Assembly (NCBI GenBank): GCA_034370385.1
Contig: JAXMKZ010000004.1
Location: 65,238 to 129,237 of the forward strand
Source: Coriobacteriia bacterium
Lineage (GTDB): Bacteria > Actinomycetota > Coriobacteriia > Anaerosomatales > PHET01
Length of the DNA stretch: 64,000 nucleotides
Direction of reading: 5' to 3'
The translations under genes were made by a program, and so were the position numbers. Below the pieces are notes generated by a model. The model ran no database searches and was not told where the DNA came from. It was given only the letters and a program-made list of their open reading frames with translations. Of the stretch, positions 15,665 to 40,512 are shown one piece after another; position 1 is the stretch's first letter; each line of letters opens with the position of its first letter.

Positions 15665-16342
15665 TCAGCCGACTGCCCCGAACACGTCGAAGACGACGAC
15701 GAGGTAGTAGACGGCCACGCTCGTCATCACCGCACCGGCCACGAACGAGATCGCTCGCTCCCGCTCGACGAGCACGTTGACCATCCGCCGGCTCGCCGCG
15801 CGGGTGACCAGCGAGAACGCGATGAGCGGCGTGCCGATACCGAGGCCGAAGGCCACGAAGTTGGCCAGACTCGCAACGGGGTCGGTCACCAGCACGCTTC
15901 GGGCGAGGAACGCAGCGATGAAGGCAGGGTTACAGGGGATGACGATGGCGCCGAAGAAGAAGCCGTAGAGGTAGCTCGCCAGCAGCGGATTCTTCGGCTC
16001 GGGCAACCGCACTTTGCGACGGACCTCGACGCCGGCCATCATGAGCACGCCGATGACCGCCAGAATGGCGAACGCTATCGGCGAGATGACTCCGATGACC
16101 TGCTGAAGCGACTCCTGCAGCAGGGTCGTGAAGACGAGCCCGAGGATGAGCATGAAGCTCACCACGCCTGCGGTCACCACGAGACCCGTGAGGGCCAGCA
16201 CCCGACGATCATCTCGATCGGCGTTGGCAAGCCGCGCCATGCGAGCAAGGAACGCGGGATACAGCGGAATGACGCACAGCGCCGTCAGCGGCGTCAGAAG
16301 ACCGAGCAGGTAGCTCGCTCCCACAAAGCGAAACCAGTCCAC
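15665..16342 (-). CDS. ccdA: CcdA/DsbD-type transmembrane thiol-disulfide electron carrier
   Basis: A 225-residue integral membrane protein with about six hydrophobic segments. Two cysteines lie in membrane-helix contexts with nearby prolines: C23 (TALCVIPLYPAF) and C137 (VIPCNPAF). This is the cysteine pair CcdA proteins use to move reducing equivalents from cytoplasmic thioredoxin to an extracytoplasmic partner. The GTG start at 16342 lies 3 nt beyond the TGA stop of the selenothioredoxin gene, so the two are coupled. In CcdA operons the adjacent TlpA/ResA-like protein is normally the electron acceptor; here that partner has Sec in place of Cys. Confidence 0.88.
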   Translation of the reverse strand: MDWFRFVGASYLLGLLTPLTALCVIPLYPAFLARMARLANADRDDRRVLALTGLVVTAGVVSFMLILGLVFTTLLQESLQQVIGVISPIAFAILAVIGVLMMAGVEVRRKVRLPEPKNPLLASYLYGFFFGAIVIPCNPAFIAAFLARSVLVTDPVASLANFVAFGLGIGTPLIAFSLVTRAASRRMVNVLVERERAISFVAGAVMTSVAVYYLVVVFDVFGAVG

Positions 16343-16345
16343 CCG

Positions 16346-16960
16346 TCAGCGTCCTTTCGCGATCTCGGACTTCAGCTCTTCGATGTCTTTGAGCCCGCTC
16401 GGCAGCAACCGGGCCGAAGTCTGGTCTGCCGAGATGAGCACGATAGGCGCCTGCGGCGGCGTCACGATCTCGGGACCGAATTCCTGAATCAGCGCGGCAG
16501 TGAGGGGTCCTGGAGATATCGCGACCGGCTCAGTGAGCCCACGCTCCTTCCACACCTGACGCAGCAGTCCCGCGTCCTCGTTCTCGTCGATGCCCAGTGC
16601 CACCAGAACCGTCACGCGGTCCTCGTCCAGCAGCTCATCCAAGATGGCCTGCTGGCGCTTGCACGTGCTTCACCAGGTGGCGAAGGAGTGCAGCAACACG
16701 GGCTTGCCCTTGTAGTCGGCAAGCCGGAACTGCTTGCCCGTCACGGCGTCCTCGAGTTCCGTGTCGAGCCAAGCTATCTGGCTCGCGGGCGGCGATGTCG
16801 GTGCCGGATCGGGCTCGGCGGTGTCAGGAGCCGCCGTGTCCGTCGCGGGTTCCGAGGGCACCGTCGGCACCTGGGCGACCGGCTCCGGCGAGGGGGTGCA
16901 TCCTATTCCCACCACCGCGATCAGCAGCGTCGCGAAGGCGAGTATCATCCTGTACCTCAT
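16346..16960 (-). CDS. Thioredoxin-fold (TlpA/ResA-like) lipoprotein, probable selenoprotein with in-frame TGA
   Basis: Read through the TGA at 16672-16670 this is a 204-residue protein. Start ATG 16960 has an AGGAG ribosome site 5 nt upstream. Residues 1-21 form a lipoprotein-type signal ending VGIGC; 22-60 is a Pro/Thr/Ala linker; the thioredoxin fold begins at about 62. The strand before the active site (GKPVLLHSFATW, 85-96) is followed by TGA-Ser-Thr-Cys-Lys, so TGA lies exactly at the first cysteine of a WCxxC motif (U97, C100). The same frame continues with a normal TlpA-like C-terminal half, including an APIVLI segment with the expected cis-Pro, to a TGA stop at 16346. A 7-bp perfect hairpin follows the TGA. 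A nonsense mutation is the alternative. Confidence 0.87.
16627..16655 (-). promoter_or_regulatory. Candidate bacterial SECIS hairpin
   Basis: Starting 15 nt after the in-frame TGA, CCAGCAG (16655-16649) pairs perfectly with CTGCTGG (16633-16627). Inside the 15-nt loop, CATC and GATG can pair again around a TTG triloop, giving an extended imperfect hairpin with its apex about 28 nt after the TGA. Bacterial SECIS elements lie within the coding region just downstream of UGA with the loop about 16-37 nt away and a G in or near the loop, which fits. No folding energy was computed. Confidence 0.65.
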
Positions 16961-40280: not shown

Positions 40281-40365
40281 TCGAATGCCGGTACGGAGCG
40301 GTTCGGGGCCCGGTGGTTCACTGAGCCGCGAGCCGGCCTTGGTCCTCGAAGGCCGCGTCGCGCAC

Positions 40366-40512
40366 CGCATGGCAGGTCTCCTGACTGACGAGGACGCGTT
40401 CTCCCTCGCATCACAGTGGCGGGTCCCGTCCCGGATTCTCACCGGGTTCCCTATTCTCCCCGCAGCCGAGTTTCGCGGCCATACGCGGGGCACCATGCGG
40501 CACCTATTCGAT
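40366..40512 (-). promoter_or_regulatory. Cobalamin (adenosylcobalamin-type) riboswitch
   Basis: The minus strand carries the conserved aptamer pieces in order: GGTGCC near the 5' end (about 40500), GGGAACCCGGTGAGAATCC and GGGACGGGACC in the core, the B12 box GCCACTGTGA (around 40414-40423), and the closing CAGTCAGGAGACCTGCC (about 40371-40387). Aptamer plus downstream terminator is a classic OFF switch: bound cobalamin would shut down btuFCD transcription. The boundaries are estimates by eye. Confidence 0.95.

What the first reader, a model, noticed from the sequence alone, without database searches (positions are those of the whole stretch)
15665..16960. Two-gene CcdA-selenothioredoxin electron-export module
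The CcdA-like gene starts 3 nt after the selenothioredoxin stop, so the two are translated together. CcdA carries electrons across the membrane to TlpA-like proteins. A Sec-based acceptor would give a lower-pKa, faster thiol-exchange outlet, a dedicated system that I do not know as described.
Basis: inference. Interest (0 to 1): 0.72.

Follow-up and report, generated by a model that had tools for sequence, protein, structure and literature searches.

The report
Selenium thioredoxin paired with electron exporter
A known two-gene bacterial device that carries reducing power out through the cell membrane (CcdA plus a surface thioredoxin) exists, in one group of anaerobic actinobacteria, in a conserved form whose surface thioredoxin is predicted to use selenocysteine in place of the catalytic cysteine.

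Summary
On the minus strand a TlpA/ResA/Etrx-like lipoprotein gene (16346-16960) has an in-frame TGA (16670-16672) at the first catalytic position (FATW-U-STC). A CcdA gene (15665-16342) starts 3 nt after its stop. Thirteen divergent genomes (12 of the order plus one MAG labelled Bacillota) all keep the TGA at this codon, with ccdA beside it. The genome has selA, selB and tRNA-Sec. A SECIS-like hairpin follows the TGA in most members and is stronger than synonymous codon choice predicts.

The pair itself is not new. Its Cys form (FAVWCPTC) occurs in archaea, Chloroflexi and Spirochaetes, the arrangement matches pneumococcal CcdA2-Etrx2, and UxxC thioredoxin-fold selenoproteins are known. What I did not find described is a conserved Sec lineage tied to CcdA. 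The same genome holds a second, unrelated CcdA-thioredoxin pair that also has Sec, where 26 relatives have Cys.

Most likely it is an accessory outlet for electrons: cytoplasmic thioredoxin to CcdA to Sec-lipoprotein to extracytoplasmic disulfides. The client is unknown. Cytochrome c maturation is unlikely: all 61 relatives have cytochrome c assembly genes, only 12 the pair. The faster, lower-pKa outlet is untested.

The parts
16346..16960 (-). TlpA/ResA/Etrx-like thioredoxin-fold lipoprotein with Sec: MRYRMILAF...VGIGC...FATW-U-STC...; 204 aa plus TGA stop
   Evidence: (Redoxin 8e-10)
16670..16672 (-). in-frame TGA (Sec codon) at the first, nucleophilic position of the CxxC motif
   Evidence: TGA at this codon in all 13 genomes; Cys at this place in archaeal, Chloroflexi and Spirochaete homologues
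16627..16655 (-). SECIS-like hairpin (CCAGCAG...CUGCUGG, G first in the loop), starting 14 nt after the UGA
   Evidence: p 0.005 against synonymous recoding for this gene; 13 genes combined p 4e-7; compensatory changes in the relatives' hairpin
16898..16900 (-). lipobox cysteine codon (C21), invariant in 12 aligned homologues: predicted membrane anchor
15665..16342 (-). CcdA (DsbD_TM family), GTG start 3 nt after the tlpA stop
   Evidence: 25.8 bits, just under the Pfam cut-off of 27.1; relatives 27.1-38.1 bits
16274..16276 (-). CcdA Cys23 codon (first redox Cys: TALCVIPLYP)
   Evidence: invariant where the region is covered
15932..15934 (-). CcdA Cys137 codon (second redox Cys: IPCNPA)
16352..16357 (-). 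AAAGGA ribosome-binding site of ccdA, inside the 3' end of tlpA

Best explanation
A bicistronic transmembrane thiol-reduction outlet. Cytoplasmic thioredoxin reduces the Cys23-Cys137 pair of CcdA. CcdA passes the electrons to a lipoprotein on the outer face of the membrane, whose active site is Sec-x-x-Cys. The selenolate then reduces disulfides or other oxidised sulfur groups in still unknown extracytoplasmic proteins. Shown here: the genes, the conserved UGA, SECIS-like hairpins, Sec machinery, the CcdA linkage and the conserved redox residues. Inferred: actual Sec insertion, cotranscription, the direction of electron flow and the client. It is a Sec-using branch of a widespread Cys-using TlpA-CcdA pair.
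For: UGA conserved at one codon in 13 genomes, with conserved protein sequence after it. Cys occupies the same place in archaeal, Chloroflexi, Spirochaete and other homologues, themselves next to ccdA. selA-selB-selC cluster in the genome. Of the 12 genomes of the order with the gene, 9 have selB, a tenth has tRNA-Sec, and the other two are 65% and 85% complete. SECIS hairpin stronger than synonymous recoding; compensatory pairs; the Leu codon at the hairpin loop is TTG in 9 of 9 genes, against 10 of 139 Leu codons elsewhere in these genes. Both CcdA redox Cys conserved. Trx fold, closest to ResA and Etrx1. Cytoplasmic thioredoxin and an adjacent thioredoxin-reductase-like gene present. Sec monophyly not rejected (AU p 0.48). 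A second CcdA pair in this genome also has Sec.
Against: No proteomics or expression data. The window CcdA scores slightly below the Pfam cut-off. The SECIS hairpin is not exceptional in every member (L021, L025, L027 among others not significant on their own). Nothing conserved beside the pair points to a client. Two genomes with the gene showed neither selB nor a convincing tRNA-Sec (G010, G049; both incomplete). No promoter was found.
Confidence: 0.8

Rival explanations
1. It is the ResA/CcdA branch of cytochrome c maturation (System II): the Sec-lipoprotein reduces apocytochrome CxxCH for haem attachment.
For: Fold matches ResA and TlpA. CcdA-ResA is the classical System II partnership (own knowledge). 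All relatives have Cytochrom_C_asm proteins.
Against: All 61 relatives have cytochrome c assembly and at least one DsbD_TM protein, but only 12 have this pair; the genome has three other DsbD_TM proteins. Woesearchaeota and Pacearchaeota carry the Cys form, and I know of no cytochromes c in them (own knowledge).
Confidence: 0.15
2. The outlet feeds extracytoplasmic methionine sulfoxide reductase or peroxide defence, as CcdA-Etrx does in pneumococci (a more specific form of the best explanation).
For: Etrx1/Etrx2 are among the closest solved relatives. ccdA2-etrx2 is the same bicistronic layout, and its electrons go to MsrAB2 (PMC3914529).
Against: No conserved neighbour beyond the pair in the Sec loci. 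Presence of a secreted Msr was not searched. These organisms are probably anaerobes.
Confidence: 0.3
3. The TGA is a real stop, a sequencing error or a decaying gene: a truncated 96-residue protein and no selenoprotein.
For: Plain translation gives two ORFs split at the TGA.
Against: Same codon in 13 genomes; invariant residues after the TGA; Sec machinery; hairpin conservation.
Confidence: 0.02
4. The pair runs in the oxidising direction or as an isomerase: the Sec protein makes or shuffles disulfides and CcdA resets it.
For: Trx-fold proteins can act either way; HP0377 of Helicobacter is reported as both a reductase and an isomerase (abstract).
Against: CcdA/DsbD partners known to me keep their Trx partners reduced; the two-Cys CcdA core is intact.
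Confidence: 0.1

Closest known systems
Pneumococcal CcdA2-Etrx2 and CcdA1-Etrx1 extracellular electron pathways (PMC3914529)
   Same: Thioredoxin-fold surface lipoprotein encoded with its own CcdA (etrx2-ccdA2 is bicistronic); homologous fold (4hqs profile E 2.7e-14; Foldseek 5e-9)
   Different: Cys, not Sec; reduces MsrAB2, encoded in the etrx1 operon; no such gene is conserved near the Sec pair
Cys-form TlpA-CcdA pairs of Methanosarcinaceae, haloarchaea, DPANN archaea, Chloroflexi, Spirochaetes and Bipolaricaulota
   Same: Same two genes, same order, TlpA mostly 35-48% identical to the window protein; same CcdA signatures (TPLTAxCVxPLYP, IPCNP)
   Different: Active site FAVWCPTC or similar (Cys); no UGA
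ResA/CcdA and TlpA thiol-disulfide oxidoreductases (cytochrome assembly)
   Same: Fold, CxxC place, CcdA partnership
   Different: Sec; accessory distribution (12 of 61 genomes) although cytochrome c assembly is universal in the order
Known UxxC selenoproteins: thiol-disulfide isomerase-like (cd02966), Redoxin family (PF08534), Prx-like oxidoreductase (PMC13188914, Table 1)
   Same: Thioredoxin-fold, UxxC, same broad Pfam families
   Different: CcdA does not occur in that review; the window protein passes the cut-off of no NCBIfam selenoprotein model
TsoB, rhodanese/DsbD fusion-like selenoprotein (NF045694)
   Same: Sec combined with a DsbD-type membrane domain
   Different: Fusion with two Sec; the window CcdA matches it only weakly (13.8 bits against a cut-off of 805)

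Membership tests
Bacterial selenoprotein | In-frame UGA aligned with a catalytic Cys of homologues and conserved across species | tested here: met
   13 genomes with UGA; Cys in the sister forms
Bacterial selenoprotein | SECIS stem-loop directly after the UGA with G early in a small loop | tested here: met
   not significant in every single member
Bacterial selenoprotein | selA, selB and selC in the genome | tested here: met
   selA-selB-tRNA-Sec cluster on contig C11
Bacterial selenoprotein | selD in the genome | not tested
Bacterial selenoprotein | Sec actually inserted | not testable with these tools
   needs mass spectrometry or 75Se labelling
TlpA/ResA/Etrx-like thioredoxin lipoprotein | Thioredoxin fold with C/UxxC, lipobox Cys | tested here: met
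   (pLDDT about 90 in much of the core)
CcdA (DsbD_TM) | Pfam DsbD_TM at gathering score | tested here: inconclusive
   window protein 25.8 bits against 27.1; Sec-locus orthologues 33-38 bits
CcdA (DsbD_TM) | Two membrane redox Cys | tested here: met
   both conserved wherever the region is covered; exactly two Cys in the window protein
CcdA-Etrx electron pathway | Adjacent ccdA and thioredoxin-lipoprotein genes | tested here: met
   all Sec loci, same strand, close together
CcdA-Etrx electron pathway | msrAB client encoded in the operon (etrx1 type) | tested here: not met
   no conserved third gene; the etrx2-type operon lacks it too (PMC3914529)
CcdA-Etrx electron pathway | Electron transfer Trx to CcdA to lipoprotein to client | not testable with these tools
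   cytoplasmic Trx and a TrxR-like gene are present
System II cytochrome c maturation | Occurrence linked to cytochrome c assembly genes | tested here: not met
   assembly genes in 61 of 61, pair in 12 of 61

The most novel reading that the evidence does not exclude
In this order, coupling to CcdA itself favours Sec: separate CcdA-linked thioredoxins (the window's TlpA; a membrane Trx with U-QSC in the same genome and U-RSC in a relative; a rhodanese-Trx with U-PVC in another genome) have each taken Sec. That would make transmembrane export of reducing power a general, selenium-dependent trait of these anaerobes.
Probability: 0.35. Interest if true: 0.62.

Novelty: new variant of a known kind. 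Interest (0 to 1): 0.5.

Why it matters
It ties selenium to a definite membrane electron path. The functions of most known selenoproteins are unclear (PMC13188914); here a partner (CcdA) is fixed by conserved gene order, and Cys versions of the same pair exist for direct Sec/Cys comparison. That makes the question of what Sec buys in thiol exchange outside the cytoplasm testable.

Tried and rejected
Genome-wide TGA reassignment: rejected, tlpA ends in TGA and a Sec machinery is present. Strain-specific mutation: rejected. Sec spread outside the class: one MAG labelled Bacillota (L052) nests inside the Sec clade, so transfer or mislabelling cannot be told apart; 398 genomes of its phylum gave no other hit, and other Actinomycetota found have Cys. 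Conserved client from neighbours: none. Independent Cys rows inside the Sec clade: three long-branch rows; Sec as one clade not rejected. Promoter and terminator scan: nothing. Two papers by Haft and co-workers on selenoprotein gene clusters were not held, so a description there cannot be excluded. Rfam search of the window gave only a cobalamin riboswitch.

Full report
What is there. On the minus strand, 16960-16346 encodes a thioredoxin-fold lipoprotein with one in-frame TGA at 16672-16670, in the context FATW-TGA-STC; 16342-15665 encodes a CcdA that starts (GTG) 3 nt after the tlpA stop. An AAAGGA ribosome-binding site lies in the tlpA 3' end. Pfam gives Redoxin 8e-10 for the first gene, and DsbD_TM 8e-6, just below cut-off, for the second. 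Orthologous CcdAs reach the cut-off. Named close relatives are Anaerosomatales and other Coriobacteriia MAGs.

It is a selenoprotein by comparative evidence. Twelve of 61 relatives have a homologue, and each has exactly one in-frame TGA at the same codon. A thirteenth lies in a MAG labelled Bacillota. Invariant residues follow the TGA. The genome carries a selA-selB-tRNA-Sec cluster. Nine of the 12 genomes of the order with the gene have selB and a tenth has tRNA-Sec; the other two are only 65% and 85% complete. tlpA itself ends in TGA, so TGA is not simply reassigned.

SECIS. Most relatives have a hairpin of the type CCGCC-AGUU-GGCGG whose inner stem begins 11 nt after the UGA, with compensatory changes (CG, GU and UA at one pair; covariation score reached by 9 of 500 shuffles). 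The window gene has CCAGCAG...CUGCUGG instead. Against synonymous recoding with these genes' own codon use, folding is stronger than expected (window gene p 0.005; 13 genes combined p 4e-7, treating them as independent). In the nine genes with Leu at the hairpin loop the codon is always TTG, while TTG is 10 of 139 Leu codons elsewhere in these genes. Shared ancestry makes any nominal probability too small, but the bias is clear.

The Cys form. A scan of genome contigs with the family profile gave 80 loci. The loci from other groups carry FAVWCPTC-like Cys sites, and nearly all have ccdA directly downstream: methanogens, haloarchaea, DPANN archaea, Chloroflexi, Spirochaetes, Bipolaricaulota and a few other Actinomycetota. 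The scan patterns spelled Cys, so distant Sec members could be missed. In the tree the Sec rows sit together, with three long-branch Cys rows among them; one Sec clade is not rejected (AU p 0.48). So the lineage has a Sec version of a wider pair; whether Sec or Cys came first is not settled.

How it probably works. The two CcdA cysteines (TALCVIP, IPCNP) are conserved. The lipoprotein core is predicted with good confidence and matches ResA and the pneumococcal Etrx1/Etrx2. In the pneumococcal model electrons flow from thioredoxin through CcdA to Etrx and on to MsrAB2, and etrx2-ccdA2 is a two-gene operon (PMC3914529). Cytoplasmic thioredoxin and a thioredoxin-reductase-like gene are adjacent in this genome. 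By analogy the pair exports reducing equivalents to outer-face disulfides, with Sec as the attacking residue. Direction and client are inferred. Cytochrome c maturation is unlikely to be its main task: assembly genes and other DsbD_TM proteins occur in all 61 relatives, the pair in 12.

A second case. Another CcdA of the same genome (contig C11) follows a membrane-anchored thioredoxin with FHSMS-U-QSC; a relative has FHSLS-U-RSC; 26 relatives have Cys there. Both Sec genes have a GGUC-loop hairpin after the UGA (for example UCGGC-GGUC-GCCGA), and in both the ccdA start (GTG) overlaps the stop of the thioredoxin gene. A third genome has a rhodanese-thioredoxin with GST-U-PVC before a CcdA. Sec has thus probably entered CcdA-linked thioredoxins more than once here. 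These further cases rest on few genomes and were not followed as far as the window pair.

Known or new. A 2026 inventory of prokaryotic selenoproteins lists several UxxC thioredoxin-fold families and a rhodanese/DsbD fusion, but does not contain the word CcdA (PMC13188914). No NCBIfam selenoprotein model passes its cut-off on the window protein. I rate it a new variant of a known kind. Two relevant papers on selenoprotein gene clusters were not available.

Noticed in passing
L146 (G000:C11:64401-66800), Trx gene 806-1405 minus, TGA at 1051; also L142, L145: Second CcdA-coupled selenothioredoxin in the same genome, with a GGUC-loop SECIS-like hairpin; Sec in G000 and G005, Cys in 26 relatives. 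The neighbouring permease resembles SaoE/SO_0444-type efflux transporters.
   Followed up: partly
L172 (G007:C141:13400-15500), 889-1653 minus: Rhodanese-thioredoxin fusion with in-frame TGA (GST-U-PVC) directly before a CcdA gene.
   Followed up: partly
L052 (VGTO01000003.1, labelled Bacillota), 149-1416: Sec-TlpA-CcdA pair nested inside the Coriobacteriia Sec clade, in a genome with selB: gene transfer or a mislabelled MAG.
   Followed up: partly
L021 / L032, ccdA start: The ccdA 5' end is out of frame with the rest, probably an assembly frameshift.
   Followed up: no
window 40354-40512 (minus): Cobalamin riboswitch (Rfam 86 bits).
   Followed up: no
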